Positions 4,909 to 63,686 of a stretch of 64,000 bases of DNA are shown piece after piece (positions within the stretch are counted from its first letter, which is position 1; the number at the start of each line of letters is the position of its first letter). The notes beneath the pieces are model-generated. The model was not told the origin of the DNA. It saw only the letters and a list, made by a program, of their open reading frames with translations, and did no database searches. The stretch is taken from the IMG/VR virus record IMGVR_UViG_3300043446_001534, positions 1-64,000 of that record; one strand, given 5' to 3'. This DNA comes from a virus. The translations under genes were made by a program, and so were the position numbers.

Positions 4909-4930
4909 GGGGGCCTGGCAACGGGCCCCC
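4909..4930 (+). promoter_or_regulatory. GC-rich intergenic stem-loop after capsid gene
   Basis: GGGGGCC (4909-4915) pairs with GGCCCCC (4924-4930) around an 8-nt loop, 12 nt after the capsid stop codon and 38 nt before the next start. The following sequence (TAACACAACAAC) has no U-run. It may be a weak terminator that tunes capsid expression against downstream genes, or an mRNA-stabilising or processing hairpin. Confidence 0.55.
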
Positions 4931-16339: not shown

Positions 16340-19300
16340 ATGCCAGATAGTCTGCAACCAGTAGATAACGTGCTAGGAGCACGCTATCGCTACTATACTG
16401 TCAACATCGTTACCAATACCGTTATTGGTGAAATTCCTTTTGAAGATGTAAGCTACGAGCGTTCAGTAAAAGCTCCTGGAGCGTTTGATGGAAAGATTAC
16501 AATTTCTGACCAAACTTCTAATTTAGACCTGTATAACGCTACACTTCCTGGAAAAACTGCACTTTACGTTGTAAGAAATGATGAGGCAGTTTGGGGTGGC
16601 ATAATTTGGGGACGCACTTATGACCTCAAAGGCAGAAGTCTTGCTGTTTCAGCTAGCGAATTTACTAGCTATCTAAGCCACAGAATTATCTGGAAGACCT
16701 ACTCTCACGACTGCTCCGCTAAGCTGACTAAAGCCACTTCTAGCAGCTACGTGCTTGTTACTATTCAAGATAAAGTTTTGAAAGCTGCTCCAGCTATTAC
16801 CGATAATGCTGGCAATCCAAACTATGTAACTATTACATTTAGTGATAATGCTTACAGAAAGTATAGCGGTAGCTACAAGATTGTTGGGAAATCATCATCT
16901 CCGGCTGCTCCAGCTAATCCTGGTAGAGCTGCTTTTTATGTGGACATACCAGCCCTGCCTAAAAAGTCTGTTGGAGTATATGACGGGGTGGGGGTAACCT
17001 TAAAGGCCGATACATATGAATTCCTGAGAGACATAATCACATCTACCTTCTCCGACTTTACTGACATAGAGTTTCCAAACGCCATCATAGAGCCTGGTAT
17101 TAAAATTCCTTATGAACTTGATACTAAACAACTCACTATTACTGATGACTCTAATGGTGTTGCAACTATAACCACCAAAAGCGAGCATGACTTAACTGCA
17201 GGTCAGAGAATTGAAATTGTAAACGTTGACCCGATGTTAGATGGGTTTCACACTATCTCGGCAACTCCAACTAAGTACAGCTTCCAATATGTTCTTACTA
17301 ATCCAATCAGCAGACATGATAATGTCTCCAGAGTTTACCTAGATAGTTCTTTATCTACTCCTGTCTCGCTGAGTGCTAGCGTGGACATGGTAAAAGTTAG
17401 ACAGGTAGTAGAATACCTTCCTCAGTATGTAAATTATGTCCAGCGAGTTTCTGGTGTCATAACTGCCACGTTTAATTCAGTGCACACTTTTAAAAAAGGC
17501 GATAAAGTTATTGTTAACTTTGAAAAAAATGGCGTAACTGAAAAACTGGAAGAAGTAAAGACTAAAAACACTGATGGTACAACTACTACCAAAAAAGAAA
17601 AAGTCAACACTTTTGATTTTAAAAAGTATAACGACACTGTTACTGTAACCTCGGCTACCGCCAACGCTATTACATTTCTAGACCCGGACCCGGACCACGT
17701 ATCGCCTGGGTACGATACAAAAGGAAATGTAAGTCCATCTAAAAACTCTATAAAAAATGCGGCCCCGCTTCCATTGCTACTTCTATATCCGCAAAACTCT
17801 TCTGGATACAATATGGGAGACGATATTAGAGTTGATGGGGTAGATGACGCTGGATGGCAGTACCCTGTATATGATGGTTACCATAAAGTCTACGAGGTAA
17901 GCCCGGGTAAGACTTACTCGATTACTAAATACAAAGCTGAGTCTGATTGGCTAACTGAAGATACAGATGATGTTGATGATAAGAGAGTCATTGCTTATGT
18001 GTATTGCACTACCGACCCCGGCATAGAAGCTGGCGACGAGTTTGTTGTGTCTGGCATCACTGGAACAACTGCGTTAAATGGTACATATACTGCGCTATTA
18101 GACTCGTTCCTTGACCCCACTTACAGTCTTTATGCAGTTCCTTACATTAAGCAAATATCTGCGGTTTCTATAACTACTCAGGCATCGGGTGCCTCTTTGG
18201 TTAAAAACGGTGAGACTTGGATTGCTTATCAACCAGGCACCAGTGAACTTAGATACAGTTTAAAAAATGAACCTGATGCCGATTCCGGAATATCAAAGTT
18301 TGAGTATACAGCTGCTAAAGGCGACAAAAAGAACGTTGTACAAATCACAACAAAGTCTAGACATGGCTTAAAAATTGGCGATACTGTAAAAATTGTCTAC
18401 GGTCAGTCAGATAAAAATGTCGACCAAGAAACCTACGGTGGTACAGTAAAAGTCACTGCGGTTCAAGATTACGATACTTTTTCTTACACTCTTATAAAAG
18501 GTAAGCATAAAAAAGATGCCCCTAAAAAGGATGTAGAACTTACCGATAAGAGTGGAACCGTAACAAGGCTAAGACATGGAATATTGAATCCTGAAATAGT
18601 TCAAGAAGAAATAGATTCTGTCAGAACCGAGATTACTGCCGCAGGTGCTACTCAAGTTACTGTCTATGCTCCGGGTCACAACTTTAAAAAGGGAGATTAC
18701 ATATCTGTATCGGTAAATGACTCAAACTATAAAGGCATTAATACCGAAGCTACTCCTAAAAAAATTACTTCTGCGGCTGGCAACTATTTCAGGTATATTT
18801 CTGGGTCTCCGGTGGTTGAGGGTCAGACTTCTAGTCTTTCTCAGATTATCTATAGTAAAGACGGAAGCACTGTAAAGTATAAAGCTTCTAAGTTTGCAGC
18901 GGCCTACACAGCTGCGACTAGAACGGCAACTCTTTTAGAGCCTAATAAAACTACCGGATTTGTTACGTTTACTACTTCTGTAAGCCACGGATTTGTAGTC
19001 GGTCAGAAAGTAACTGTTGCTGGTTTTGTGGCACCTACAGCATCAAGTTCTACAACTACAACTAGAAATCATACAATTTCTAGCGTCACTTATGATGCTA
19101 ATACAAAGACTGCAATTGTTAGATTTACATCCGCTCACAGCTTGCGTCCTCTTGTCGATGTTGGTGCTTCATTTACTGTAGCCGGTGCAAACAAAACAGC
19201 AGTTTGGCCTTCAGGAACCACAACTTTTCCATTTGTCGATATTTCTTGGTTAAATGCTACGCATACAATTGTCGACATACCAGACACCACTTCTATTGCT

Positions 19301-38509: not shown

Positions 38510-41113
38510 ATGTCCAATTGGGATTCAGCAAGCAACGGTAGGTTAGCAAAAGGTGCGGAATGGTACGCATCTAAAGGGTGGAAACTACTTCCCTGTCACG
38601 GTATTGCTGACGGTGGACGCTGCACTTGTAGTCAGCCTCACGGTGAGCCGAAAGATGTAGGTAAGCACCCGGCAATTCGTGAGTGGAACATCAATGCCAC
38701 TGACGATGCTGCAACTGTAGCTGGCTGGTGGGAACGTAACCCTGACTATAACATTGGTGTTTTTTGTGGTCCATCTGGATTCCTTGTAATTGATGTCGAC
38801 CCTCGCTCTGGGGGGTTAGAGTCATTTGAAAAGTTTGAAGAACTATTAGAGGGTGTTCTACCTGCTACTGTTGAGGCCCAAACCGGTGAATACATGCACA
38901 ACGGTAAGATTGTGCGCGGTCGCCACCTCTACTTCAAGTGTGACCCTGAAGAGCAGTTTGTCGGAAACCTAATTAAGAATGGCCTTAAGGGTATCGATAT
39001 CAAACACAATGGGTATGTTTTGATTGCTCCATCTAGACACTTCTCTGGAACTGCTTATGACTGGAAGCCAGGACATGCTCCCTGGGAAATGGAAATGGCA
39101 GAAGCCCCCGAGGAGTTGCTACAGGCCATTCGCAAAAAAGCACGTCGTGGAACTGGAACTAGCTACGCCGAGGGTAGCTGGGACTGGATGTCAGAACTTG
39201 ATTTTAAAGGTGAAAAAGTTGACATCCAAAAGATGCTTGAAGACGGCATTGATGAAGGCTCCCGTGCTGTAGACATTTATAAACTAGCGTGTGCTCTTGC
39301 TAACAAGTTTGGTACTACTCCGGACGCTCAGATGATGATTGAGACGATGATGATTCGTTTCAATCACGAAAAGGTTCGCCCTCCAATGGAGCTTGAGGGC
39401 CCTAACTCTCTACTTATGCACACTCGTCGTGCGATTGAGTTTGTAGCCAATAATCCTAAGAGTAATCGGCTGTGGCCTGGTATTGATGACTGGGAGAAAG
39501 GTCGCCAGTGGGCTCAGGAAATTTCATCACCGGAAGCTCAGGCTCAGATTGGCGGTGGTTATCCCGGTTCAAATGTTGTAGGTAGTCAAATTACTAGGCT
39601 AGTCGAATCTGGAATGTCTCTCACTGAAGCAACTACAAATGGCAACATTGATATCCCAGAAGATGCTGATGCAATTGATGAAGCCGGCGGTGGACGTCCT
39701 GGATTCCGTACGCTTACTGATATGGGTAATGGTCGTCGTTTAGTTGATAGCTACGGCTCGGCTATTCGCTATACTCCTGGTCTTGGTTGGTTCCGCTGGG
39801 ATGGAAATTACTGGAAGCCAGATTTGGAAAGCCTAGAACTACAGGAGCTAGCAAAAAATGTTGCGACAGTGATTGCTGCTGAAGTAAGTAATCACGACGA
39901 CCCGGACAAGAAAACAGAGATTCTTAAGTGGGCCTATCAGACTAAGTCAAACAGTCGCATCAAAAACATGATTGTCAGTGCTAACTCGGACCCTCGTGTT
40001 GTGGTTGGAGTAAACCAGTGGGATAGCGATGACAACTTACTTGGTGTTCAGAATGGTGTAATTGACCTTAAAACTGGAGAACTATTAAAAGGCCAACCAA
40101 ATCTCTACATTACGCGTCGTGCTCCTGTGGCTTACAACCCGGGAATTCGTAATCCACGCTGGGAGCAGTTTATCGACTTTGCTACTGGTGGAGATAAAGA
40201 ACTTCAAGACTGGCTACAACGTGCTGTTGGTTACACGCTTACTGGTAGGAAAAACCACGACATTATGTTCTTGGTTTACGGTCCTCCAGGGTCTGGTAAG
40301 AACACATTTGTCGAGGCTATTGTAAAAGCGCTGGGAACTCAGCAGTACTCATGGCCACTTGATTCTGGAGTGTTGGCCGCTGGCGATGGTTCGGCTAGCC
40401 GTTCTGATGAATACCACTGGGCTCAGTTGCGTGGTCGTCGTATGGTTTGGGTTGACGAGCTTCCAGAATCTGAGCGTCTTAAGGAGAACTCGGTCAAAAA
40501 GCTTACTGGTTCATCTGAAATCTCGGCGCGTTCTCCGGGTGAACAGCCGTTTACTTTTCAGGCTCAGGCTAAACTTTGGGTGACAACTAACCACCGCCCT
40601 ACCATTACTGATGATGCTATGTGGCGTCGTCTTCGCCCTATCCCGCTAGAAAATGTCCCGGAGAAGCCGGACCCAGATTTGAAGGCTTACTTATTTGACC
40701 CTGAAGGCGGTCTTCCGGGAGTTCTTGCCTGGGCTGTTGAAGGTGCTATTAAATACCTAAACTCTAGTGCCAAGGACCCTTTGGCTATGTGCTCTGCTGT
40801 TGAAGAAGCCGCATCTGTGTATCGTAAGAATGAGGATAGAATCGGTTTGTTCCTGGAAGAAGAGACTATTGAGTCCGAAGGTGCTTCGCTTGGAGTAAAG
40901 GCTCTATACACAATCTATAAGATGTGGACAGAAGAGCGTGGAGAGCGTTCTTTGTCTCAGACTAACTTTCAGCGTCGTATGGCTGACCGTGGCATTAAGA
41001 TTGAAGGTCAGGGCTCTAAAGCTGTAATTCTCGGTAGAATAATGGTTCCTAGGGCTGTACCTAGTGGAGAAGTTGACTGGGGGACCGCAACACGATTTGC
41101 TAAAAACTTCTAA
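38510..41113 (+). CDS. Prim-pol / D5-type primase-helicase
   Basis: 867 residues with ATG preceded by TAGGAGAG. N-terminal bifunctional primase-polymerase domain (about 1-220): CHGIADGGRCTCSQPHG zinc-like motif, WWERNPDYNIGVFCGPSGFLVIDVDP (catalytic DxD) and GRHLYFKC. A linker (220-420) leads to a D5_N-like region (LVDSYGSAIRYTPGLGWFRWDGNYWKPD) and an SF3 helicase: Walker A VYGPPGSGKNTF near 590, MVWVDELPESERL (B/B') and WVTTNHRP (sensor). These P4-like proteins unwind and prime phage DNA. It is the only replication gene on the plus strand, facing away from the polymerase cluster. Confidence 0.9.
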   Translation: MSNWDSASNGRLAKGAEWYASKGWKLLPCHGIADGGRCTCSQPHGEPKDVGKHPAIREWNINATDDAATVAGWWERNPDYNIGVFCGPSGFLVIDVDPRSGGLESFEKFEELLEGVLPATVEAQTGEYMHNGKIVRGRHLYFKCDPEEQFVGNLIKNGLKGIDIKHNGYVLIAPSRHFSGTAYDWKPGHAPWEMEMAEAPEELLQAIRKKARRGTGTSYAEGSWDWMSELDFKGEKVDIQKMLEDGIDEGSRAVDIYKLACALANKFGTTPDAQMMIETMMIRFNHEKVRPPMELEGPNSLLMHTRRAIEFVANNPKSNRLWPGIDDWEKGRQWAQEISSPEAQAQIGGGYPGSNVVGSQITRLVESGMSLTEATTNGNIDIPEDADAIDEAGGGRPGFRTLTDMGNGRRLVDSYGSAIRYTPGLGWFRWDGNYWKPDLESLELQELAKNVATVIAAEVSNHDDPDKKTEILKWAYQTKSNSRIKNMIVSANSDPRVVVGVNQWDSDDNLLGVQNGVIDLKTGELLKGQPNLYITRRAPVAYNPGIRNPRWEQFIDFATGGDKELQDWLQRAVGYTLTGRKNHDIMFLVYGPPGSGKNTFVEAIVKALGTQQYSWPLDSGVLAAGDGSASRSDEYHWAQLRGRRMVWVDELPESERLKENSVKKLTGSSEISARSPGEQPFTFQAQAKLWVTTNHRPTITDDAMWRRLRPIPLENVPEKPDPDLKAYLFDPEGGLPGVLAWAVEGAIKYLNSSAKDPLAMCSAVEEAASVYRKNEDRIGLFLEEETIESEGASLGVKALYTIYKMWTEERGERSLSQTNFQRRMADRGIKIEGQGSKAVILGRIMVPRAVPSGEVDWGTATRFAKNF

Positions 41114-41240: not shown

Positions 41241-42044
41241 ATGAAAATTTGCATCGCCACCCCGATGTATGGCGGAAACGCTAAAAGCATGTATGTAGCT
41301 TCGCTCGTCGAACTACTAAATAAGTTGGTATTGAACGGTCATCAAGCGTTTCAGACTGTAATCACTAACGAAAGTCTAATCACTAGAGCAAGAAATTCTT
41401 TGGTGCACGAGTTTCTAAAAACTGATGCGGATGCTATCTTGTTCATAGACGCTGACCACGGGTTCTTTGCTGATGATATTTTAAGAATGGTTGAATCTGG
41501 TAAAGACCTGATTGGTGGTATTTACCCAATGAAAGCTATTAACTGGAACAATGTCAGAAAAGCAGCACTTGCTGGTAAAGAGAATCTTTCAGAATATTCT
41601 GGATTTTTTGCGGTAAACTTTTTACCTGAGGCTCAAACTTTTCAGTACTATGAACCTTTTAAAGTTCGTGATATTGGTACCGGGATGATGTTTATCACTA
41701 GAAAAGTTTTTGAAGAACTTAAGCCTCATTGCAACAAGTATAGAAATAACTCCATTAATAATGGAAGCATTGAAGATGCGGAAATCACCGAGTACTTCAC
41801 CACTATGATTGACCCTGATGACAAGGTCCTTCTATCAGAAGACTATGCTTTCTGCTACATGTGGAGAAAATTAGGAAATGATGTATATGCTGCCCCGTGG
41901 GTAAGACTTACTCACGCTGGTGATTATAACTTTGCCGGAAACTTCTTAAATATGCTGGAAGCTAATGAAATGCCAGACATTCCTATCGATGCTCCAGCAG
42001 ATTCCGCACAGTCGTCGGATACCACTTCCGCTGATTCTGAGTAG
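41241..42044 (+). CDS. Glycosyltransferase, GT-A type
   Basis: ATG at 41241 with TAGGAGAAC upstream is preferred; a GTG at 41166 would place the leader hairpin inside the coding sequence. The 267 residues start MKICIATPMYGGNAKSMYVASLV. They contain SLITRARNSLVHEFL, the DxD motif ADAILFIDADHGF (about residue 65-77), DLIGGIYPMKA and DIGTGMMFITRKVFEEL, then SEDYAFCYMWRKLG and VYAAPWVRLTHAG. This is the pattern of phage and cyanophage GT-A transferases. The C-terminus is low complexity (DSAQSSDTTSADSE) and overlaps the convergent recombinase gene by 62 nt. Confidence 0.8.
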   Translation: MKICIATPMYGGNAKSMYVASLVELLNKLVLNGHQAFQTVITNESLITRARNSLVHEFLKTDADAILFIDADHGFFADDILRMVESGKDLIGGIYPMKAINWNNVRKAALAGKENLSEYSGFFAVNFLPEAQTFQYYEPFKVRDIGTGMMFITRKVFEELKPHCNKYRNNSINNGSIEDAEITEYFTTMIDPDDKVLLSEDYAFCYMWRKLGNDVYAAPWVRLTHAGDYNFAGNFLNMLEANEMPDIPIDAPADSAQSSDTTSADSE

Positions 42045-42642
42045 GTATTCCATCACGGTTTAGTCCGTCGGCAATAGTTTTATACGAAGCCCCTGAAGCT
42101 CTTTCAGAGATAACTCTCTGTTTAATTTCTTCGGGGGTTTTGTTACGTGGTCCCATGTCTACGCCCCAGACTACGCCTCTTGCTCTACGGTCTTTATGAA
42201 CATCACGCTGACGTTCAGCAATAATGCCACGTTCCATCTCGGCAAGAGCAGACATAATAGTCACTACAAATCTTCCCTGATACGAAGATGTGTCTAGATT
42301 CAAATCAAGCATTACTAATCGCCAGTTATTTTTATTAGCTCTATCAACAATGCTTAAGAAGTCTTGGGTAGAGCGAGCAAGTCTATCTATTCTTGTCACA
42401 AATAATGCTTGTGCGTTACCAGCATCTAGTCTTTTCAATGCTTCTGTTAGTGCCGGTCTACCAGAGATAGATTTTCCGGAGCGACCTTCTTCGCGTACTA
42501 TTTCTATATTTGTAAACCCGGCCATTTCTGCCGCTTGTTGTAGCTGACGCTCTTGAACATCAAGAGATACACCATCGTTTACTTGTAGCTGCGTAGATAC
42601 ACGGGCATACAATAGTGCTAGTCCTGGATTATCTGTACTCAC
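41983..42642 (-). CDS. Short serine recombinase (resolvase/invertase type)
   Basis: 219 residues. Catalytic domain about 1-145: LLYARVSTQLQ (nucleophile S16), REEGRSGKSISGRPALTEAL, LFVTRIDRLARS (catalytic arginines), and ALAEMERGIIAERQ. A C-terminal helix-turn-helix-like part (TPEEIKQRVISERASGASYKTIADGLNRDGIPTQ reads as helices) ends at TTVRNLLEHR. It lacks the large zinc-ribbon/coiled-coil part of serine integrases. It could resolve multimers, invert DNA or integrate. It sits next to the inverted fibre cassette. Its 3' end overlaps the convergent glycosyltransferase gene. Confidence 0.82.
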   Translation of the reverse strand: MSTDNPGLALLYARVSTQLQVNDGVSLDVQERQLQQAAEMAGFTNIEIVREEGRSGKSISGRPALTEALKRLDAGNAQALFVTRIDRLARSTQDFLSIVDRANKNNWRLVMLDLNLDTSSYQGRFVVTIMSALAEMERGIIAERQRDVHKDRRARGVVWGVDMGPRNKTPEEIKQRVISERASGASYKTIADGLNRDGIPTQNQRKWYPTTVRNLLEHR

Positions 42643-47008: not shown

Positions 47009-50008
47009 CTAGCCAATAACTACTGCGCGGTACTCGCTACCTGCCAATGTGGCTGAGTTGAAGGTTAGGGTTACAACGTTGGCACTTGTGGTTACGACAT
47101 CAACCTCGACTGAAGCATTGGTTGAGTTTTGGTACACATCAACAACTACGTTAGAAGTGTTGAGGTTGTGAGTGACTGTCCAAGTTACAACTCCTGAAGA
47201 AGCAGTAAGCGCGCCGTTGTTTTCTGCGTACTTCTTAGTGTAAGTACTTGAGTCAGAAGTTAGGTTACCGCTTGCATCTACCTTTACAAAACCTGCGGTT
47301 CCACCGGATAGTGGGCCAACCTTTGTAAGAACAGATGATGTACCGGCAGTTGGAGTCAAGTAATCAGTTCCAGCAGTACCTGCAGATAGAGCACCCGAAG
47401 CACCAAGCTTAACTAGACCAGAAGTTCCAACACCTGAAAGTCTTACAGAACCGGCAATGTCTGTGTATAGGGTGTTGCTAGTACCAATTTGAATGTAACC
47501 ATTTGAGCCGGAACCTGCTCCAGCGTTGATTGTTACTAAACCACCTTGGCCGTCAGCGACTCCGGTTGCAGACCCAGCGACGAGTGATACGCTACCACCA
47601 GTAGCTCCAACTCCAAGAGTTCCTGCAGTAGAAGCACCACCAGTAATGCTTACAGAACCACCAGTAGCCGGACCTCCTGACCATGATGTAGCACCACCGG
47701 TTAAGGTTATGCCGGTTCCGCTAGCTGTGGTTCTGTTTGGTAGAGTCACTGCCAGTGTTGTTCCAGCAGTACCAGTAATTGTAGTTACGCTGCTAAGTGC
47801 TCCAGTAACATCTGCAGAGCCGTTGAAGTTTTGACCCCATAGAGTTCTGGTTGTTGTAAGTGTTGCAGCTGAACCAGTCGTATTTCCAGACATTGTTGAG
47901 TCTGTAAACGCGATTGTCTTACGAGTTGTGCTTGGTGTGAAGTAAAGGCTAGTACCATCAAATTCAACGGCACCGGCTGCAGCTGTAGTTAGGTTTGTAC
48001 CTGACTGTAGATATAGAGGAGCAGTTCCTGCGGTTGCAGTTCCAGCACGAAGTGTAAGAGTTCCAGTTAGTGTACCTGGTGTAGCCAGAGTCATAACCGT
48101 GCTGCTTGAGCTTGGGAACGTCATTGTTGTAGAATCGGTTCCAGAGAAAGCAAGAGTATTGTTTACTGTCAAAGTCTTGCTTGTTGTACCACCAGCAATG
48201 GTGAATCCAGTTGCGGCTGCGGTTAAAGTTAGACCGTTATACGTCTTACCAGTTAGAGCAGAAGCAATTCTTGCATCAGCTACTGTTCCTGTAGCAACGT
48301 TTGAACCGTTTAGGTTAGTAAGGCTAGCACCAGAACCGCTAAAGACAGTTGCAGAAAGTGTTCCAGTTGAAGGCACAAACGATAGTGCAGCTGAAGTTGT
48401 CTTAATTGCGTTGTTACCAGTATTTGCACCAACCCAAGCGATGTAGACAGAAGTTGCGGTTGCTGCATCGTTAGTTACACCAACGTTAGTTGTGTTGGTC
48501 GAAAGTGTTACAGCATTTGCACCAATTGCCGTAGTAATGTCTGTTCCTGATGCAACAGATACAGCTGAGGTGCCGTTTCCTCTAAGAATTCCACCGCTTG
48601 TGAAAGTTGTAGCTCCAGTACCACCAGATGCCACTGGAAGAGTTCCAGTTGTCAAAGCCGAGCTAGAACTTGCGTATACTGCACCACCAGAAGTAAATGT
48701 TGTAAGTCCAGTACCACCGTAGCCTGTGCCAATAGTGGTTCCATTCCATGTACCTGTAGATACAGTTCCAAGAGTATTTATGGATGTTTGACCCTGATAA
48801 GTACTCTTTATGGCAAAGGTTGTTCCAGAAAGGGTAAGGGTAGTTTCATCTGCAAGATATGTACCAGCACCAGAGAACTGAGTGTACTCTATGTTGTCGG
48901 TACCAATCTTAATGGTTCCACTGGTTGCAGTACCTGAGTTCTTTTGGGTCCAACCGGTACTTGCTAGAGTATTACCACCAGTAACAAATACAAAGTCACC
49001 AGCGGACATCTCTCCAAGGACCGAGTTATTTCCATCTGCTGTACGAGTAAGAGTAATGTTCGTGCTTACAGTGGTTACTTCATAAAGACCGTTATGTAGC
49101 TTATTAGTTTGGTTCTTAACAAGAATACGAGTTTTATCTGTGGCATCTTGGGAAACAAGAGCTACACCATCAATTGAGTTTCCGGCTGCTGGGTAGACAA
49201 GAGTTGCTCCAACACCTGTACCGCCATCAGCACCGGTAGTACCTGCAGTGTATGTGGCTGAGGTAATGTTTGCAGTGGTTGCATACTTAACTGCGTCGTG
49301 AACGTTTAAACCTGCGGTTACCGAGTCAACATAGGCAATGGTAGCAATTGTGTTGGTATCAACGCTTACAGTACGAGCAGCAGAACCATCAAACGTAGTT
49401 CCAGAAGATAGCGTTAGCCCAGTGCTAAAAGTGAGGGCATTGGCAAGAGAGCCAGCGGTACCGCTTACGTTTCCTGTAAGGTTTGCGGTAATTGTGTTCG
49501 CAGTAAAGTTACCGGATGCATCGCGGGCAACAATTGTTGAAGCCCCGTTTGCAGAGGCGGCTGTTGTAGCAGAGTTTAGAACCTTACCGGCACTTGAAAT
49601 AGTTGCTAAGTAGGAATCAGCGATGGTTGCAGTGCTAGATAGGGCACCGGCTGCGTTAGTTAGAACTATACCAGCGGTTGTAAGTGGTGTGGTAATAGTT
49701 CCTGTAAAAGTTGGAGATGCAGTAGGCGCGGCCCCGATTGTGTTGTAAGAAACGGTTAGGGTGCTAGAGCCATCAAATGTGGACCCCGAAGCTCCTCCGG
49801 AACCAGCACTGTTAAAAGTAAGGGTGCTAATGGTTCCTGTTGTGATAACCTTCCAGGTGCTACCGTTGTAGTACTTTAGGCTTCCACCAGTGTTGTAGTA
49901 GATTTGACCAGTAGCTGGGGTAGACGGGTCGCTAGCAAGGTTCTGAAGAGCAGCATTTTGCAACTCATTCTTGTTGAGGTCAATCGGTACTAAAAATTTA
50001 CGAGCCAT
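47009..50008 (-). CDS. Large tail fibre protein (999 aa)
   Basis: Starts [28 protein letters not shown] with [17 protein letters not shown], a typical fibre N-terminal attachment segment. Then come long Thr/Ser/Ala/Gly-rich beta repeats ([51 protein letters not shown]), a middle domain with [18 protein letters not shown] and [24 protein letters not shown], and a C-terminus ending [20 protein letters not shown]...EYRAVVIG, a head-binding-like or tip domain shared with the next gene upstream. Sequence sharing with the 646-residue fibre shows past duplication. Confidence 0.78.
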
Positions 50009-53255: not shown

Positions 53256-55289
53256 ATGTTCTCGTTTAAACTAAATGAAGAATTTGTGGCGGAGTACAAG
53301 CAAAAAGAATCACCTTTCGGTTACAAAGATGCCGCTGGCAACTCTGTAGGCGAGATTACATTCCTACGCACGTACTCGCGCAAGAAAGAAGATGGCACTA
53401 AGGAAACCTGGGCGGAGGTGTGTGAGCGTGTTACTAACGGAACTTATTCAATTCAAAAAGACCACGCACGTGCTAACCGTCTGCCATGGTCAGATGCTAA
53501 GGCTGCTGCCTCGGCTAAAGAGTTTTTTGACTCGCTATTCCACCTAAAGTGGTCGCCTCCGGGCCGTGGCCTTTGGGTTATGGGGACTCATATTGTAAAT
53601 GTTCAAAAAAACTCGGCTGCTCTACAGAACTGTGCTTTTGTATCGACTTTGGAGATGACCAAGCAGAACCCAGGTAAGCCATTTGCGTTCCTAATGGAAG
53701 CGTCGATGCTAGGTGTAGGCGTAGGCTTTGACGATAAGGGTGCGGACAAGGGCTTTGAAATTTATGAGCCAGGCTCTCCGCAGGAGTACATTATCCCAGA
53801 TACCCGTGAAGGGTGGCAGGAAAGTACTGTTGCTCTAATCAACTCATACCTGAAGCCTGAACAACCTAGCTGGGACTTTAACTATGACCAGATTCGTCCT
53901 TATGGCTCACCTATTGCAACTTTTGGTGGAACTGCTTCCGGCCCTGACCCGCTAATCGCCCTACACAACAAGATTCGTGAAATTTTTATGGGTCGTAAGG
54001 GTCAGCTCTTAACTACTGTCGATATTGCTGACATCGGTAACCTAATTGGCCGCTGTGTTGTATCTGGAAACGTTCGCCGTTCGGCCGAGTTGCTGATTGG
54101 TCGTATTGACGATGACAACTTCCTAAATCTGAAGAATGCGGAGCGTTTCCCTGAGCGTAACTCTTATGACCCAGAAGTCCCCGGTTGGGGTTGGATGTCG
54201 AACAACTCGGTCATGGTAAACGTTGGGACTGACTTCTCTAAGATTATTGATGGCATCGTTCGCAACGGTGAGCCTGGCGTTATCTGGGAAGATATCTCGA
54301 AGGCTTATGGTCGTTTGATTGACCCGATAAACAATAAGGACCACCGCATTATGGGCTATAACCCTTGTGCAGAGCAGTCGCTTGAGAGCTACGAGATGTG
54401 CACCCTTGTTGAGACCTACCTAAACCGTCACGAAAGCAAGGAAGACTATCTTCGCACTTTGAAGTTTGCCTACCTATACGCTAAGACCGTGACTCTACTC
54501 CCTACCCACTGGGAGGAGACAAACGCAATCATGCAGAGAAATCGTCGTATCGGAACTTCCATGTCTGGTATTGCTAACTTTGCTGACCGCAAGGGTCTTC
54601 CGGAACTTCGTACTTGGATGAACGAAGGCTATGCAGTAGTAAAGAAGTATGACGTTACCTACTCTGAATGGCTAGGTATTCGTGAGTCAATCAAGACCAC
54701 AACCGTCAAGCCTTCTGGAACCGTGTCGATTCTTGCTGGTGAGTCGCCAGGAGTTCACTGGACCCCGGGTGGTGAGTACTTCCTGCGCGCTATTCGCTTT
54801 GGAAACAATGACCCTATGTTGCCTCTATTTAAGATGGCTAACTATCGCATTGAACCTGCTTCAGAATCGCCAGAAACTACCTCGGTTGTGTTCTTCCCAA
54901 TCAAGTCTGGTGCTATGAGAGCAGAACGCGATGTATCTATCTTTGAGAAGATGAACTTGGCTGTCATCGCTCAGCGTTACTGGTCGGATAACTCCGTCTC
55001 TGTAACAGTCACTTTTGACCCAGAAACTGAGTCAGACAAGATTGGCACTGTTCTACATATGCACGATGGTCAGTTGAAGACTGTGTCATTCCTACCTTCA
55101 GGAAACCACGTCTACCCTCAGATGCCGTATACCCAGATTACTAAGGAAGAGTATGAAGAAGCTGCTGCTAGCTTGTTCCCTATCTCTTTGACTGGTATCT
55201 ATCAGGGTCTAGGTATTGAAGCTATTGGCGACGCTTACTGCACTACAGATGCATGCGAGATTAAGCTGATTGTAGAAAACCAAAAGTAA
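53256..55289 (+). CDS. nrdJ: Class II (adenosylcobalamin-dependent) ribonucleotide reductase
   Basis: 677 residues, monomeric RTPR type. Features: N-terminal RTYSRKKEDGTKETWAEVCERV; LQNCAFVSTLEM with the first active-site Cys; MGVGVGFD-like substrate region (LGVGVGFDDKGADKG); GRCVVSGNVRRSAEL; the radical-site segment NPCAEQSLESYEMC; and TVKPSGTVSILAGESPGVHW. The C-terminus has CTTDAC (C-x4-C), like the thiol shuttle pair of Lactobacillus RTPR. It converts ribonucleotides to deoxynucleotides with coenzyme B12. The stop codon overlaps the start of a gene that makes that coenzyme. Confidence 0.93.
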   Translation: MFSFKLNEEFVAEYKQKESPFGYKDAAGNSVGEITFLRTYSRKKEDGTKETWAEVCERVTNGTYSIQKDHARANRLPWSDAKAAASAKEFFDSLFHLKWSPPGRGLWVMGTHIVNVQKNSAALQNCAFVSTLEMTKQNPGKPFAFLMEASMLGVGVGFDDKGADKGFEIYEPGSPQEYIIPDTREGWQESTVALINSYLKPEQPSWDFNYDQIRPYGSPIATFGGTASGPDPLIALHNKIREIFMGRKGQLLTTVDIADIGNLIGRCVVSGNVRRSAELLIGRIDDDNFLNLKNAERFPERNSYDPEVPGWGWMSNNSVMVNVGTDFSKIIDGIVRNGEPGVIWEDISKAYGRLIDPINNKDHRIMGYNPCAEQSLESYEMCTLVETYLNRHESKEDYLRTLKFAYLYAKTVTLLPTHWEETNAIMQRNRRIGTSMSGIANFADRKGLPELRTWMNEGYAVVKKYDVTYSEWLGIRESIKTTTVKPSGTVSILAGESPGVHWTPGGEYFLRAIRFGNNDPMLPLFKMANYRIEPASESPETTSVVFFPIKSGAMRAERDVSIFEKMNLAVIAQRYWSDNSVSVTVTFDPETESDKIGTVLHMHDGQLKTVSFLPSGNHVYPQMPYTQITKEEYEEAAASLFPISLTGIYQGLGIEAIGDAYCTTDACEIKLIVENQK

Positions 55290-56997: not shown

Positions 56998-57309
56998 ATG
57001 ACCGACTTTCTACCTAAGGATTATCCGGACTTTAAAGAATTTGGTACTCCACCTTGTGCAGAAAGTTATCCAGACGCATTTTTTACAGACGAACCGCTAG
57101 AAGGTAGTCGCGTTTACAATCGAAAATATTCGTACGAGCAAGAGGCTAAGGCAATTTGTAAAGCCTGTCCGTACATGGCTAGATGCCTAGAATACGCAGT
57201 CAAGCACCCGGAACTGGTTGGAATCTGGGGCGGAACTACCGAAGCACAGCGGAAGAGGATGAGAAAAGCTTCAAAAAGTGGCGCTTCTACCCTTCCTAGT
57301 CAAAGCTAG
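56998..57309 (+). CDS. WhiB-like transcription factor (second copy)
   Basis: 103 residues. C20 and the C54-x2-C57-x5-C63 group bind a [4Fe-4S] cluster; GIWGG at 75-79 and the basic TEAQRKRMRKASK helix follow, as in WhiB DNA-binding ends. An acidic insertion separates the first two cysteines. Unlike the WhiB-like protein at 24.8 kb it has no zinc ribbon. Its place at the end of the B12/NrdJ transcript suggests a link with redox state or late control. Confidence 0.85.
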   Translation: MTDFLPKDYPDFKEFGTPPCAESYPDAFFTDEPLEGSRVYNRKYSYEQEAKAICKACPYMARCLEYAVKHPELVGIWGGTTEAQRKRMRKASKSGASTLPSQS

Positions 57310-58270: not shown

Positions 58271-58591
58271 GGGGATGACTGGTTTCGACAGTTGTCTTAA
58301 TGTTAGTGAAGCAAGCCGAGACGGCCACGCACTCGTAAGTGTGGCAAAACAATAAATGCTGAATCACGTTCCGCATTCGCTCTAGCAGCCTGATAGTTGC
58401 ATAGAGCCCCCAGAAAAGCAGTAGTTCTAGCTGGGCATCTGGGTCTTAAATAAATAGAACAAACCAAAAGGTTGCAGCAGGAGACCTCTAAATATCCCGC
58501 CTTCGCAGTACCGTGGCTGGTAGAGCCTAAGCTTGTAGAAGAATAACTGAACGTCAATTGGACCGGGGTTCGATTCCCCGCATCTCCACTA
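58271..58591 (+). ncRNA. ssrA: tmRNA (transfer-messenger RNA)
   Basis: The 5' end GGGGATGACTGGTTTCGACA and the 3' end GGACCGGGGTTCGATTCCCC-GCATCTCCA are textbook tmRNA. The acceptor stem GGGGATG/CATCTCC includes the G3-U70 pair required for alanine charging. The tag frame starts at a GCT (58358) and reads AESRSAFALAA before TGA TAG (58391-58396); with the charged Ala the peptide would be A-AESRSAFALAA. The end after the discriminator A (58588) is CTA, not CCA, so the host must finish it. The gene rescues stalled ribosomes; phage copies are known in actinophages. Confidence 0.95.
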
Positions 58592-60155: not shown

Positions 60156-60227
60156 TTGTATAAACTTAGGTTTAAAGTTATACGGGAGATTGTCCGTTCT
60201 GTTGTGTACGAAGTTGATACCTTATGA
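60156..60227 (+). CDS. Possible micro-ORF (23 aa)
   Basis: TTG 60156 with GGAG seven bases upstream, ending in TGA overlapping the next ATG (ATGA). The peptide MYKLRFKVIREIVRSVVYEV plus three residues is a basic beta/helix segment. The good ribosome site and ATGA junction suggest a coupling peptide for the cupin gene; it may not act as a protein. Confidence 0.35.
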   Translation: MYKLRFKVIREIVRSVVYEVDTL

Positions 60228-60565
60228 AACCAGAGCAACGCCCATGGGGTTCCTACGAGATTATGTCAGACTTTAACCCGCCTTGCTGTGTGAAGATTAT
60301 TACCATCAATCCGCACTCACGACTATCGCTACAAAGACACCGCTATCGCTCTGAGCGTTGGAGGGCTTTGGACAAGGGTCTTATCGCAGTGGTAGGTGGC
60401 GAAGAAATCAAGATGCGTCTAGACAAAGACGTTTTCGTCGACGCCCTTACTGAACACCGAATAGTCAATCCAACCGATGAACCGCTGAGAGTTCTAGAGT
60501 TGATGTTTGGTCTCTATGACGAGGATGACATTACCAGAATCGAGGATGATTATGAACGAGTCTAA
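60224..60565 (+). CDS. Mannose-6-phosphate isomerase type II-like cupin
   Basis: 113 residues matching the C-terminal isomerase/cupin part of ManC-type proteins: RPWGSYEIM, VKIITINPHSRLSLQRHRYRSERW (metal-binding His/Glu cupin motif 1), DKDVFVDALTEHRIVNPTDEPLRVLEL (cupin motif 2, HRI.N) and FGLYDEDDITRIEDDYERV (the EDDI.R.EDDY.R ending). Free-standing single-domain forms interconvert fructose-6-P and mannose-6-P, feeding GDP-mannose. It may supply sugar for the phage glycosyltransferases; that link is inferred. Confidence 0.82.
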   Translation: MKPEQRPWGSYEIMSDFNPPCCVKIITINPHSRLSLQRHRYRSERWRALDKGLIAVVGGEEIKMRLDKDVFVDALTEHRIVNPTDEPLRVLELMFGLYDEDDITRIEDDYERV

Positions 60566-60713
60566 CGAAGACTACAAGCGTATAGTTCGGGCTTTGCGTG
60601 AGGAAAGAATGCGACAACAGAAAAGGCTTTACCAGCAAGCTAAGAAAGCTAGAAAATCTAATATCGTCGACGCCAGTAAGGATAGACCAAAAGAAGGAGA
60701 AACCAATGGCTGA
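60552..60713 (+). CDS. Small basic helical protein (53 aa)
   Basis: ATG 60552 overlaps the cupin gene by 14 nt. One long charged helix (NEDYKRIVRALREERMRQQK, then RLYQQAKKARKS) followed by IVDASKDRPKEGETNG. The VDASKD segment is encoded by the recurring GTCGACGCCAGTA motif discussed in the findings. Probably a coiled-coil or RNA/DNA-binding peptide; function unknown. Confidence 0.55.
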   Translation: MNESNEDYKRIVRALREERMRQQKRLYQQAKKARKSNIVDASKDRPKEGETNG

Positions 60714-60876
60714 TGGATGGACATGTACAATCTGTAACACCAGACTGAGTACCAATAGCAGTAGTGCCCATAGCGTGGCTTTTGACCTAGAGATTATCTC
60801 TCATGCTAGGGGTCACGAATGCACTTGTACTGGTGATGGTGAAAAGTGCGAGAGATGTAGGTTAATGATTCAATGA
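60706..60876 (+). CDS. Small zinc-binding protein (56 aa)
   Basis: ATG 60706 with AAGGAGAAACC upstream, overlapping the previous gene by 8 nt. Cysteines lie in WTCTICNTRL (C-x2-C), HECTC and EKCERCRL (C-x2-C), with histidines in between (HSVAFDLEIISHARGH). The treble-clef-like arrangement should bind one or two zinc ions. Function unknown. Confidence 0.65.
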   Translation: MADGWTCTICNTRLSTNSSSAHSVAFDLEIISHARGHECTCTGDGEKCERCRLMIQ

Positions 60877-61112
60877 GAGACTATGAACTAGAATGTGTTC
60901 ATGGAATTGGTCATTCAGCCGGATTGCATGGCTGTGATGGCTGCTGTCTGCCACTAACCAAGGCTGCCAGCGACACTGAAATCAGAATGCAGGCTGCTAT
61001 GGCCGCCGCAGTTATTGTTGGAGCAAAGGGGTTCCCTTTGAGTATGACTCCAGAGATAGCCGAGAAGTTTGTTAGATATATCAAGGAAGGTCCAGAATGC
61101 GAGAGTTTTTAA
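60873..61112 (+). CDS. Small Cys/His protein (79 aa)
   Basis: ATGA overlap with the previous gene. LECVHGIGHSAGLHGCDGCCLPL is a His/Cys-rich cluster that could bind zinc (four Cys, three His). It is followed by a helical half (ASDTEIRMQAAMAAAVIVGAKG and TPEIAEKFVRYIKEG). The start VHG.GH...LHGCDGCC resembles a motif widespread in small phage proteins of unknown function. Confidence 0.62.
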   Translation: MRDYELECVHGIGHSAGLHGCDGCCLPLTKAASDTEIRMQAAMAAAVIVGAKGFPLSMTPEIAEKFVRYIKEGPECESF

Positions 61113-61261
61113 ATCCAGACCCCGAGGGTAAAACCGTCGACGCCAGTATTGATGAAATCGACGAGCGACTAGAGTTGCTCGGGATTGAGTTAAACGTTAT
61201 CCGTGAGCACGCCGACGCCCTTAAGGATAGATTAGACAAGCTACAGCAGGATTTGTTGTAG
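61097..61261 (+). CDS. Small coiled-coil protein (54 aa)
   Basis: ATG 61097 with AAGGAAGG upstream, overlapping the previous gene by 16 nt and ending 11 nt before tRNA-Thr. MREFLNPDPEGKTVDASIDE then a heptad helix (IDERLELLGIELNVIREHAD, ALKDRLDKLQQDLL). Carries two copies of the recurring GTCGACGCC-like DNA motif (61135 and 61210). Likely oligomerises; function unknown. Confidence 0.6.
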   Translation: MREFLNPDPEGKTVDASIDEIDERLELLGIELNVIREHADALKDRLDKLQQDLL

Positions 61262-61272
61262 ACTGTAAATCT

Positions 61273-61345
61273 GCCCCTATAGCTCATCTGGTAGAGCGAC
61301 GCACTTGTAATGCGTAGGTGACGGGTTCAAGTCCTGTTGGGGGCT
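61273..61345 (+). tRNA. tRNA-Thr (TGT)
   Basis: Acceptor GCCCCTA/TGGGGGC, D stem GCTC/GAGC, anticodon stem ACGCA/TGCGT with loop CTTGTAA (anticodon TGT), T arm ACGGG-TTCAAGT-CCTGT, discriminator T, then CCC rather than CCA. Complete cloverleaf. It reads ACA most directly. Confidence 0.95.
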
Positions 61346-61366
61346 CCCATACAAATAAGGAGAATG

Positions 61367-61585
61367 ATGGAAGACCTAACAACAATGGTGGGTAAGCGAG
61401 TAGAAATCTGGTGGAATGCATCAGTACACAAGAACGCTGAAAGCGAGGAACTACTGGTTCCTGTGTCCCATGGTTATGGTGTAGTTGAGGCTGAGAATGA
61501 CTTTGGTATCTCTATCCACAACGAGAATGACCAGCACGTGTTCATTCCGTGGACCTCAATTGCGAGCTTGTCTGTAGACAGATAG
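61367..61585 (+). CDS. Hypothetical protein (72 aa)
   Basis: Two adjacent ATGs (61364, 61367); the second sits better after TAAGGAG. A short helix is followed by a beta sandwich: MEDLTTMVGKRVEIWWNASV, LVPVSHGYGVVEAENDFGISIHNENDQ and HVFIPWTSIASLSV. The V-G-x-x-V...G.G.V........I......FIPW..I..L layout resembles Sm- or KOW-like small barrels. Function unknown. Confidence 0.6.
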   Translation: MEDLTTMVGKRVEIWWNASVHKNAESEELLVPVSHGYGVVEAENDFGISIHNENDQHVFIPWTSIASLSVDR

Positions 61586-61604
61586 TCACAGAAAATGGTA
61601 AAAT
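61575..61604 (+). promoter_or_regulatory. Promoter for HSP20 gene
   Basis: TAGACA (61575-61580), 18-nt spacer, TAAAAT (61599-61604) preceded by GG. Fits the GGTARAAT -10 pattern of other single-gene units here. It overlaps the end of the preceding gene. Confidence 0.5.
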
Positions 61605-61610
61605 AGGTTT

Positions 61611-61665
61611 AGATACGCCAAACGGGTATCTATAAATCAGCTGGTCTTCGGACAGCGAAGACTAG
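61611..61665 (+). promoter_or_regulatory. Two leader stem-loops of HSP20 gene
   Basis: AGATAC (61611-61616) pairs with GTATCT (61626-61631); then CTGGTCTTCG (61641-61650) pairs with CGAAGACTAG (61656-61665), 10 bp with one G-U and a 5-nt loop. The second ends 24 nt before the ATG. A heat-sensing role can be imagined for an HSP20 leader, but neither stem sequesters the ribosome site. Confidence 0.55.
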
Positions 61666-61689
61666 CATAATCACGTCTAAGGAGTGAAT

Positions 61690-62190
61690 ATGAGTAAAAA
61701 CCATGGCTGGGACTCTTTCCCGCCAGACAAGCACGACTACTGGAAAAAGCTACAAAAACCAGAGCAACCAAAGGTTCTAACAATTCAGGACCTATTCCCC
61801 CGCATTGAGCGTTGGGGTATTGGATGGAATCCAGTACTAGAAACGCTAAAGCAAATCTCCGAAATCAAGCCAAGCTACCCGCCTTATGACATCATCCGCT
61901 CGGGTGATGACTATCAGATTGTCATCGCGGTAGCTGGTATCAAGAGGCATGAGCTTCAAATTACCCTTGATAATCGGAGCCTTATCGTCGCCGCAGGTAC
62001 TGATACATCAGAAGACCCTGTAGGTGAGGTAATCCATCATGGAATCGCCCAGAGGGACTTTAAACTGACCTTCGCGCTCGCCGAGTACGTTGAAGTTAAG
62101 TCAGCCAAGCTTGAGGATGGTCTCCTAACTATTAAGCTAAAGTTGGAGCTGCCAAAGCACCTGGAACCAAAATCCGTCAAAATCGACTAA
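61690..62190 (+). CDS. HSP20 / alpha-crystallin small heat shock protein
   Basis: ATG 61690 follows AAGGAGTGAAT; a GTG at 61684 overlaps that ribosome site. The 166 residues have an N-terminal arm (about 1-60, KNHGWDSFPPDKHDYWKKLQ), the alpha-crystallin domain (PPYDIIRSGDDYQIVIAVAGIKRHELQITLDNRSLIV ... RDFKLTFALAEYVEVKSAKLEDGLLTIKLKLELP) with the conserved A-x-L-x-x-G-L-x-I motif as AKLEDGLLTI, and a short tail. It is IbpA-like. Such ATP-independent chaperones occur in some aquatic phages and may protect virion proteins. It has its own promoter, leader and terminator. Confidence 0.93.
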   Translation: MSKNHGWDSFPPDKHDYWKKLQKPEQPKVLTIQDLFPRIERWGIGWNPVLETLKQISEIKPSYPPYDIIRSGDDYQIVIAVAGIKRHELQITLDNRSLIVAAGTDTSEDPVGEVIHHGIAQRDFKLTFALAEYVEVKSAKLEDGLLTIKLKLELPKHLEPKSVKID

Positions 62191-62201
62191 GTTCCCTAAG
62201 G

Positions 62202-62228
62202 AAACCCCTCGCTAAGGCGGGGGGTTTT
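62202..62228 (+). terminator. Intrinsic terminator of HSP20 gene
   Basis: AAACCCCTCGC (62202-62212) pairs with GCGGGGGGTTT (62217-62227) around TAAG, one U-G pair, followed by T. Located 11 nt after the HSP20 stop. Confidence 0.8.
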
Positions 62229-62244
62229 CTACTAGAATAGACAT

Positions 62245-62475
62245 ATGAACGAGTATGGCGTTATTCAGCTGGGAGGCTATCTGCTATCCCTACCTGGGGC
62301 GTTTCTGTATCTTTCTAGTATGTATTTAGCTATTCGTCTTGCTTGGTTAGTTTCTGGAGACGAGAATGTTAAGCACTTTAGATTAACTAAGTTCTCTGTC
62401 TTTGGAATGTTGTTCATCTCGTCAGTTGTGTTGCTTTGGATTCAGTTGGGAGTTTGGTTCTATGTCAAAGCGTGA
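62245..62475 (+). CDS. Small membrane protein with two helices (76 aa)
   Basis: Hydrophobic helices at about 9-34 (LGGYLLSLPGAFLYLSSMYLA and following) and 51-73 (VFGMLFISSVVLLWIQLGVWFY), separated by a charged loop (SGDENVKHFRLTKF). No signal peptide. It is followed by another membrane peptide with a 14-nt overlap, so they may form a complex. Phage small membrane pairs can act in lysis or superinfection control; not shown here. Confidence 0.6.
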   Translation: MNEYGVIQLGGYLLSLPGAFLYLSSMYLAIRLAWLVSGDENVKHFRLTKFSVFGMLFISSVVLLWIQLGVWFYVKA

Positions 62476-62635
62476 TTTTTGGATTGCTGTTTTTATTTAC
62501 TTCTTCTCTGCAAATATTGCATGGACGCTTGTAACTATCTCGCTGCCTTGGATAGTCTGGTTGATTGGTCAACCGTTTCTTGTCCTTCTTAGCATGATGA
62601 TTGTAGCTATTACCGTAGGAGGTAGAAACAAATGA
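62462..62635 (+). CDS. Small membrane protein (57 aa)
   Basis: ATG 62462 inside the end of the previous gene. Two closely spaced hydrophobic stretches (FWIAVFIYFFSANIAWTLVTI and WIVWLIGQPFLVLLSMMIVAI), short basic ends (MSKRD; GGRNK). Holin-like size and topology. Ends with a 4-nt overlap to the metallopeptidase gene. Confidence 0.58.
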   Translation: MSKRDFWIAVFIYFFSANIAWTLVTISLPWIVWLIGQPFLVLLSMMIVAITVGGRNK

Positions 62636-62979
62636 GAATACCTTCGATGCCAAATGAGATAAAGGTTGGCACTCAGATTTACCAAGTAATCCTTCGTACT
62701 CCGAAGGAAGATGGAATGTTGAATGATGGTAACTTTGGCTATACTCTTGACTCTGGATTAGTCATTGTCATCGACGCCACTATTTCCCCTACTAAGCAAA
62801 GAGTGACCCTTCTACACGAACTAATGCATGCTATTCAAATGACGTTTGGTTCTCCAACTAAACCTAGCAAAGATGCTGACTTTGAAGAGTGGGAGCATTA
62901 CTTCATTGGTACTTATGAAGAGTCAATGCTTATTGTTTTACAAGACAACCCCAGTCTTCTGAAGTATTTAAGCGCATGA
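62632..62979 (+). CDS. HExxH metallopeptidase-like protein (115 aa)
   Basis: IPSMPNEIKVGTQIYQVILR, a beta N-terminus with DSGLVIVIDATISPTKQRVTLLHELMHAIQMTFG: H62-E63-x2-H66 is the zinc-protease motif, followed by a Glu-rich helix (FEEWEHYFIGTYEESMLIVLQDNP) that could hold the third ligand. The compact form resembles ImmA/IrrE- or SprT-like phage metallopeptidases. A target such as a host or prophage repressor is only a suggestion. Overlaps both neighbours by 4 nt. Confidence 0.72.
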   Translation: MRIPSMPNEIKVGTQIYQVILRTPKEDGMLNDGNFGYTLDSGLVIVIDATISPTKQRVTLLHELMHAIQMTFGSPTKPSKDADFEEWEHYFIGTYEESMLIVLQDNPSLLKYLSA

Positions 62980-63686
62980 TTTTCCACGGCGATGCTGTGG
63001 AGTTTATGCGTCAACTGGAAGACAACTCTGTTCAGCTAATTTGGACTGACCCTCCGTTTGGAACCGATATGGTGCAACGGATTGAGTCATCTGGTAAGAA
63101 GTACAGAGACCTTTCCGTCGACGCAGTTATTGAGTTAATGAAAGAAGTAGCAGATGAATCTCTTCGCGTTTTATCTCCTAGTGGCGTTCTTGCTGTTTGT
63201 CTCGACTATCGCTCGGTTCACCAGGTTTATTGTGCGATTCTCGAAGCGGGGTTTACGCCTCGTGGCGAAATTATTTGGACGTTCGGTTTAGGTCGCGGAG
63301 CAACTAAGTGGTGGGCTAATAAGCACAACACTATTCTGCTATTCAGTAAAAGTGAATCCCCTCTCTTCGACGCCAGTAAGGTTCCTATGGTAGTTAGAAA
63401 GTGGCCGAAGAAAGGCTACGAAGGAGACAAGAAAGTTTCGTCTGTTTGGGACATCACGCTATCGAACACCCATCCAGAAAGAGTTGGGTATCCAAACCAG
63501 AAACCGCTGGAACTTATTGAACCGTTTATAGAGGTACACACGCTAGAAGGTGATTTAGTGGTAGACCCGTTTGGTGGTTCAGGCAGTACTGCAGCCGCAG
63601 CTAAGAAACTTGGACGCAGGTATGCAACTGCTGATACAAACCCAGTGGCGATTGATACAATTAAGAAAAGACTTGCCGAGGACTAA
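62976..63686 (+). CDS. DNA methyltransferase (N6-adenine/N4-cytosine, beta-type)
   Basis: 236 residues. IFHGDAVEFMRQLEDNSVQLIWTDPPFG holds the catalytic (D/N)PP(F/Y) motif IV (D25-PPF), and VVDPFGGSGSTAAAAKKLGRRYATADTNPVAI holds motif I (DPFxGSGxT) for S-adenosylmethionine near the C-terminus, so the order is the beta/N4-N6 class. NQKPLELIEPFIEVHT is also typical. No recognition domain of large size and no restriction partner: a solitary phage enzyme, probably protecting phage DNA. ATGA overlap with the metallopeptidase gene. Confidence 0.9.
   Translation: MIFHGDAVEFMRQLEDNSVQLIWTDPPFGTDMVQRIESSGKKYRDLSVDAVIELMKEVADESLRVLSPSGVLAVCLDYRSVHQVYCAILEAGFTPRGEIIWTFGLGRGATKWWANKHNTILLFSKSESPLFDASKVPMVVRKWPKKGYEGDKKVSSVWDITLSNTHPERVGYPNQKPLELIEPFIEVHTLEGDLVVDPFGGSGSTAAAAKKLGRRYATADTNPVAIDTIKKRLAED

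What the first reader, a model, noticed from the sequence alone, without database searches (positions are those of the whole stretch)
60436..63381. In-frame dispersed motif GTCGACGCCAGTA inside unrelated genes
Seen: TCGACGCCAGTAAGG occurs identically at 60667-60681 and 63367-63381; GTCGACGCCAGTA at 60666 and 61136; near copies at 60436 (CGTCGACGCCCTTA), 61210 (CCGACGCCCTTAAGGAT), 62771 (TCGACGCCACTA) and 63116 (CGTCGACGCAGTTA). All lie within about 3 kb, in five or six unrelated genes and always in the frame encoding (V/I/F/A)-D-A-x. Three matches of 12 nt in 3 kb is far above chance. Inference: a protein-binding or recombination site embedded in coding DNA, or a mobile micro-repeat tolerated only in one frame.
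Basis: seen in the sequence. Interest (0 to 1): 0.6.

Follow-up and report, generated by a model that had tools for sequence, protein, structure and literature searches.

The report
One-strand-only DNA tag in phage genes
A group of uncultured actinobacterial-type phages carries a short DNA word on one strand only, tucked into genes and sometimes into the core of gene switches in one stretch of the genome; it is real and kept by selection on the DNA, probably as a docking site for a regulatory protein, but the protein and the job are unproven.

Summary
Seven copies of NYCGACGCnnnTA lie at 60437-63378, all on the + strand and in five genes; CGACGCC occurs elsewhere in the 68-kb record only once, on the other strand. 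It is not codon bias: in ten phage regions the in-gene copies exceed every one of 300 synonymous-codon shuffles, with no copy on the opposite strand. It is not a protein motif or a mobile insert either. In relatives the same stretch of the methyltransferase has other amino acids with no indel, and one relative gained its own copy 13 nt away in another frame. Over a dozen related phage contigs carry strand-exclusive clusters (consensus GTCGACG[T/C]C[C/A]NTAAGG, lineage dialects), in two sense frames, antisense and intergenic. Eight copies sit exactly in the spacer of a sigma70 promoter (TTGACA-17/18-TAnnnT; seven have 6 nt to ATG). Best model: asymmetric binding sites of a transcription regulator, operator in promoters and stoperator-like in genes. 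A two-HTH protein encoded divergently beside the clusters is a candidate (132 sites in the predicted quadrant, 2/2/0 elsewhere), but no homologue was found in the window phage's group and synteny could explain the link. Strand-specific nick sites remain a live rival.

The parts
60437..60449 (+). motif copy GTCGACGCCCTTA inside a cupin / mannose-6-phosphate-isomerase-like gene (60224-60565)
   Evidence: PWM 18.3 bits; gene by Pfam PF01050
60666..60681 (+). motif copy GTCGACGCCAGTAAGG near the 3' end of a small basic ORF (60552-60713)
61136..61148 (+). motif copy GTCGACGCCAGTA (then TTGAT) in a 54-aa coiled-coil-like ORF (61097-61261)
   Evidence: same position and sequence in relative L017 7329
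61211..61223 (+). motif copy GCCGACGCCCTTA (then AGGAT) in the same ORF
62770..62782 (+). motif copy ATCGACGCCACTA in an M78/IrrE-like metallopeptidase gene (62632-62979)
   Evidence: codon comparison across 22 sequence variants: motif only in window, L017/G001 and, in another dialect, L101
63117..63129 (+). motif copy GTCGACGCAGTTA in the DNA methyltransferase gene (62976-63686)
63366..63381 (+). motif copy TTCGACGCCAGTAAGG in the DNA methyltransferase gene
   Evidence: FDASKV only in window and L017; other relatives FQADFV/FNAEFV/FLEDEV
61987..61999 (+). possible degenerate copy GTCGCCGCAGGTA in the HSP20 gene (61690-62190), identical in G001 at 33499
   Evidence: 12.8 bits with the first PWM; weak
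62976..63686 (+). DNA N6/N4 methyltransferase gene holding two copies
   Evidence: Pfam PF01555, E 9e-38

Best explanation
The repeats are an asymmetric DNA recognition element, about 13-16 bp (GTCGACG[T/C]C[C/A]NTAAGG; window dialect GTCGACGCCAGTA), kept on one strand only across one operon and, in several relatives, the adjoining inverted gene block of a phage lineage. Most likely a phage (or host) transcription regulator binds it. In the spacer between -35 and -10 of leaderless promoters it would act as an operator; copies inside genes would act as stoperator-like sites on elongating RNA polymerase or as extra binding sites. Shown: the motif, its strand exclusivity, DNA-level (not codon or protein) maintenance, lineage dialects, and promoter-spacer placement in five relatives. 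Inferred: protein binding, regulation and the stoperator-like action. Not identified: the protein that reads it in the window phage; a two-HTH protein encoded divergently beside the clusters is the candidate in its relatives.
For: Strand exclusivity: PWM hits such as L101 0/-11, G019 0/-6, G000 +9/0 and G012 +11/-2, against 0-1.8 expected per strand. Codon null: in-gene hits 3-9 per region against shuffle means of 0.09-0.76, maxima 2-5, and 0 on the other strand in all ten regions. DNA-level: two sense frames, antisense and intergenic copies; copy gained in a different frame in L018's methyltransferase. Promoter placement: 8 copies with a perfect TTGACA 17/18 nt before the motif's TA, 7 of 8 with TAnnnT-6 nt-ATG; promoters of the same geometry outside the clusters in these genomes lack the motif. 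Candidate regulator: a ~157-aa two-HTH protein on the opposite strand beside the cluster in 7 phages; in 80 loci chosen by that protein, 132 motif hits in the predicted quadrant against 2, 2 and 0 in the others.
Against: The window group (G000, G001, G002) has the motif but no homologue of the candidate regulator and no TTGACA-type operator copy, so its reading protein is unknown. The regulator-motif link may be plain synteny; deeper homologues, including those in Microbacterium phages and DSL-LC01, have no motif cluster, and roughly a dozen of the 80 loci had first been found through the motif. About a fifth of sites are antisense to the gene they lie in, unlike most cluster A stoperators. 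Only a minority of sites are in promoters. No prophage or lysogeny evidence: no homologue of the candidate in the GTDB genome scan.
Confidence: 0.5

Rival explanations
1. Strand-specific nick sites: a phage endonuclease makes localized single-strand interruptions at the motif, as in T5, phiKMV-like and LUZ24-like phages, for packaging, replication or injection.
For: Known nick motifs are short, asymmetric and largely one-strand-only, with different main sequences between related phages at similar map positions (PMC3517423); the phiKMV motif CGACxxxxxCCTA/CTCCGG has letters in common with CGACGTCCCTAAGG. Antisense sites in the inverted block fit naturally, because nicks ignore gene direction.
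Against: No reason for eight copies to sit exactly in promoter spacers. Sites are mostly confined to one 4-13 kb region instead of spread over the genome as in tf. Spacing differs from phiKMV (3 against 5 nt) and CCTA is only one form among several here. No nickase gene was sought or identified.
Confidence: 0.2
2. An RNA-polymerase-associated element other than a repressor site: a phage antiterminator, activator or pause factor loads at the promoter spacer (as lambda-type Q does at its binding element), and in-gene copies with the conserved TA are sigma-dependent pause, loading or internal start sites.
For: The motif keeps the TA of a -10 element at fixed distance in genes too; very weak antitermination-Q-like matches of the candidate protein's first HTH (E 0.063 Pfam, 0.01 PHROGs).
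Against: The sixth base of a -10 hexamer is not conserved in gene copies (T 23%) and they have no -35; the Q match is below any cut-off.
Confidence: 0.13
3. Replication or partition sites (iteron-like direct repeats bound by an initiator or centromere protein).
For: Direct orientation, clustering in one region, and disregard for gene direction in the inverted block.
Against: Irregular spacing of about 75-1560 bp in the window; no GC-skew switch at the cluster; promoter-spacer placement is unexplained.
Confidence: 0.08
4. Codon usage, conserved amino acids or chance.
For: In the window all copies are in the frame encoding V/I/F/A-D-A-x.
Against: Codon shuffles, zero copies on the other strand in the shuffled regions, other frames and antisense in relatives, and differing codons and residues at homologous positions.
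Confidence: 0.02

Closest known systems
Operators/stoperators of cluster A mycobacteriophage immunity repressors (L5 gp71, Bxb1, TipsytheTRex)
   Same: About 13-bp asymmetric sites, predominantly in one orientation, in promoter regions and also downstream, with lineage-specific dialects; reader is a monomer with two DNA-binding domains, as predicted for the candidate here (PMC9283540, PMC6550527)
   Different: Sites here are mostly inside coding sequence and confined to one region; some run antisense to their gene; sequence unrelated; motif overlaps the spacer and -10; no lysogeny, immunity or repressor shown; no PDB fold match of the candidate at E <= 0.001
Localized single-strand interruption (nick) sites of phages tf/LUZ24, phiKMV and T5
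   Same: Short asymmetric motif, essentially one strand only, with variants between related phages (PMC3517423)
   Different: Clustered in one region; placed in promoter spacers; different sequence and spacing; no nick shown
Q binding element of lambdoid late promoters (from general knowledge)
   Same: Protein site lying in the promoter region between -35 and -10
   Different: Many downstream in-gene copies; no antiterminator established

Membership tests
cluster A-type operator/stoperator system | asymmetric ~13-bp consensus with many copies per genome in a consistent strand orientation | tested here: met
   13-15-nt consensus, several to 11 copies, essentially one strand per phage
cluster A-type operator/stoperator system | some copies overlap promoters in fixed register | tested here: met
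   eight copies in TTGACA-17/18-TAnnnT spacers (geometry only, promoter activity not measured); none in the window's own group
cluster A-type operator/stoperator system | orientation follows the direction of transcription | tested here: inconclusive
   about 60 non-redundant sense copies but 11 antisense, mostly in an inverted block
cluster A-type operator/stoperator system | cognate repressor gene of the gp71 family encoded by the phage | tested here: inconclusive
   candidate two-HTH protein in relatives; no repressor-like fold hit; absent from the window group; direct comparison with L5 gp71 not possible (record not held)
cluster A-type operator/stoperator system | site blocks transcription elongation in one orientation | not testable with these tools
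   needs a reporter assay
phage single-strand-interruption sites | recognition motif essentially restricted to one strand | tested here: met
phage single-strand-interruption sites | 3'-OH/5'-P nick at the motif in virion DNA | not testable with these tools
   needs native DNA
phage single-strand-interruption sites | match to a known nick consensus (TACTRTGMC; CGACxxxxxCCTA/CTCCGG; R/GCGCRGG) | tested here: not met
   consensus here is GTCGACG[TC]C[CA]NTAAGG; resemblance to phiKMV only partial
mobile repeat / recombination site | copies present as insertions relative to empty sites | tested here: not met
   aligned relatives differ by substitution, no gap at either methyltransferase site
recognition site of the phage methyltransferase (GTCGAC) | GTCGAC always present in the motif and GTCGAC sites in general part of it | tested here: not met
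   14 GTCGAC sites in the record, 4 in the motif; copies with ATCGAC, TTCGAC, GCCGAC

The most novel reading that the evidence does not exclude
A previously undescribed regulatory architecture in freshwater-type actinophages: a monomeric two-HTH phage protein reads an asymmetric 13-16-bp word that is both the spacer of leaderless promoters and an array of one-orientation sites written into coding sequence across an operon, even antisense through an inverted gene block, with each lineage having its own dialect.
Probability: 0.3. Interest if true: 0.8.

Novelty: new variant of a known kind. Interest (0 to 1): 0.6.

Why it matters
Short binding words written into coding sequence are easily dismissed as codon bias. 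Here selection on a DNA word appears to force amino-acid changes in genes and keeps the word on one strand. If it is a regulator site, stoperator-like control would extend beyond cluster A mycobacteriophages to a further group of aquatic phages; if a nick site, it would add a new phage group to an unexplained phenomenon known in only a few. Either reading is directly testable with one protein and one native DNA preparation.

Tried and rejected
Codon bias / protein motif: rejected by codon shuffles and by alignment to relatives. An intermediate codon-shuffle run was discarded because its gene set left many sites unshuffled; one search replaces it. Methyltransferase recognition: rejected. Mobile repeat: no indels at sites. 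Internal promoters: gene copies have no -35 and no conserved sixth -10 base. RNA-level element: promoter copies lie upstream of the inferred leaderless start, and only tRNA and tmRNA families match the region. Origin at a GC-skew switch: none. ClgR-like Xre protein as reader: far from the cluster. A second two-HTH family (G001 82562-83113) also occurs in phages whose sampled 20-kb regions show no motif, so it does not single out motif phages. Fold search of the candidate gave no PDB match at E <= 0.001. L374 repeats (TGATATAAT) are an unrelated promoter-like element. Text search for the motif found nothing on such a phage element among the papers listed. L5 record not held, so no direct comparison with gp71.
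Full report
CHECK OF THE OBSERVATION. Every quoted string is present. The window is bases 1-64000 of a 67,988-b virus record. In that record CGACGCC occurs six times on the + strand, all within 60439-63368, and once on the other strand at 40629; TCGACGCCAGTA is the only 12-mer occurring three times within 3 kb. The seven strong copies start at 60437, 60666, 61136, 61211, 62770, 63117 and 63366 and lie in five genes: a cupin/mannose-6-phosphate-isomerase-like gene, a small basic ORF, a coiled-coil-like ORF (two copies), an M78/IrrE-like peptidase and an N6/N4 DNA methyltransferase (two copies). Shuffling synonymous codons within the region gives a mean of 0.33 copies, maximum 3 in 1000, against 7.

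NOT A PROTEIN MOTIF, NOT A MOBILE INSERT. In a codon alignment of the methyltransferase, the 63366 site reads TTC GAC GCC AGT AAG GTT (FDASKV) only in the window and its nearest relative L017 (87% identical protein); other relatives have FQADFV, FNAEFV or FLEDEV, with no gap. L018 has a strong copy, TCGTCGACGCCCCTA, 13 nt upstream in a different frame. At the 62770 site only 3 of 22 codon variants carry the motif: the window, G001 and, in another dialect, L101. The frame preference has a simple cause (inference): in one of the three sense frames the motif's TAA would be a stop.

RELATIVES. L017 (contig of 125.8 kb, G001) has the same cluster, all on +, with four positions shared and others gained or lost. 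L034/G009 carries GTCGACGTCNNTAAGG on one strand in two frames, between genes and antisense in a 900-aa gene. Collection scans with degenerate patterns, then filtering for strand-biased clusters, found further contigs of GC 0.41-0.48 with the same behaviour: L083, L093, L101, L105, L109, L115, L157, L186, L188, L198, L206; some of these are near-duplicates of each other. A 15-position PWM gives, for example, G012 +11/-2, G005 0/-7, L101 0/-11, G019 0/-6, G000 +9/0, against 0-1.8 expected per strand in base-shuffled sequence. A codon null over ten regions gives 3-9 in-gene copies observed against means of 0.09-0.76 (maxima 2-5) and none on the opposite strand. Since the loci were chosen by the motif, a copy in each is expected; their number, strand exclusivity and clustering are not.

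PROMOTER PLACEMENT. Eight copies between genes or at gene edges, in G009 (2), G012, G019 (2), L101 (2) and L109, have a perfect TTGACA 17 or 18 nt before the motif's TA; seven of eight have TAnnnT-6 nt-ATG, the geometry of leaderless promoters. Promoters of the same shape outside the clusters in these genomes lack the motif. In-gene copies have no such -35. The window group has no such copy, so this evidence is from relatives only. Promoter activity is inferred from geometry.

CANDIDATE READER. A ~157-aa protein with two predicted helix-turn-helix segments is encoded on the strand opposite to the sites, beside the cluster, in G005, G009, G012, G014, G016, G018 and G019. In 80 loci fetched by this protein, PWM hits at 14 bits or more number 132 on the opposite strand on the 5' side, against 2, 2 and 0 in the other three quadrants, with reversed-matrix controls of 4, 2, 0 and 2. 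Three limits apply. Roughly a dozen of these contigs had already been found by motif; many loci are near-duplicates; and shared gene order alone could produce the pattern. Deeper homologues (mostly 50% identity and below), including those in isolated Microbacterium phages and in the lake phage DSL-LC01, show no cluster, and no homologue was found in G000, G001 or G002. AlphaFold gives two helical domains (pLDDT 85, pTM 0.50), and no PDB fold match passes E 0.001.

MECHANISM. Best supported: an asymmetric regulator-binding site, operator in promoters and stoperator-like in genes (confidence 0.5). Shown: motif, strand exclusivity, DNA-level maintenance, dialects, promoter-spacer placement. Inferred: binding, regulation, elongation block. 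The main rival is strand-specific nicking: phages tf, LUZ24, phiKMV and T5 have such motifs, for tf and LUZ24-like phages on one strand only and with dialect differences at similar positions (PMC3517423). Antisense copies in the inverted block fit nicking better; promoter-spacer placement and restriction to one region fit a regulator better. Cluster A stoperators are asymmetric, predominantly of one orientation, vary between relatives, and are read by a monomer with two DNA-binding domains (PMC9283540, PMC6550527). This works like them in layout; membership is not claimed.

SCOPE. The host is not established; WhiB, tmRNA and relatives among actinobacterial phages point to actinobacteria. No evidence of lysogeny was found: a scan of the GTDB genome collection found no homologue of the candidate, and a 219-aa serine recombinase (41983-42642) is not by itself evidence of integration.

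Noticed in passing
G001 (contig IMGVR_UViG_3300032217_000845), about 49.9 kb onwards: 40 copies of TGTATTCGTTTTTTC; the 33 listed all lie outside called genes, about 350-750 bp apart through much of 56-74 kb: probably a phage promoter or terminator-like element, unexplained.
   Followed up: partly
G012 18541-20680, G019 48842-49993, G009 38775-38995: Runs of small overlapping genes whose products end in EEPDIVY-like sequence, with a repeated junction (GAAGAGCCTGACATTGTCTA-like) that often overlaps the next start: a cassette-like linker.
   Followed up: partly
L029 20 kb locus: Many copies of TACCTTGTGTACC / CCTTGAATACC-type repeats on one strand.
   Followed up: no
L374 positions 1090-4923: Repeated ACCTGATATAATTAGA-like promoter-like element, one strand only, in a GC 0.53 phage that has the candidate regulator's homologue but not the motif cluster.
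   Followed up: partly
window 58271-58591: Phage-encoded tmRNA (tag AESRSAFALAA), confirmed by Rfam, next to tRNA-Leu, tRNA-Asn and, at 61273, tRNA-Thr.
   Followed up: partly
window 56998-57309, 53256-55289, 41983-42642: WhiB-family regulator, B12-dependent ribonucleotide reductase (76% identical to lake phage DSL-LC01) and a short serine recombinase.
   Followed up: partly
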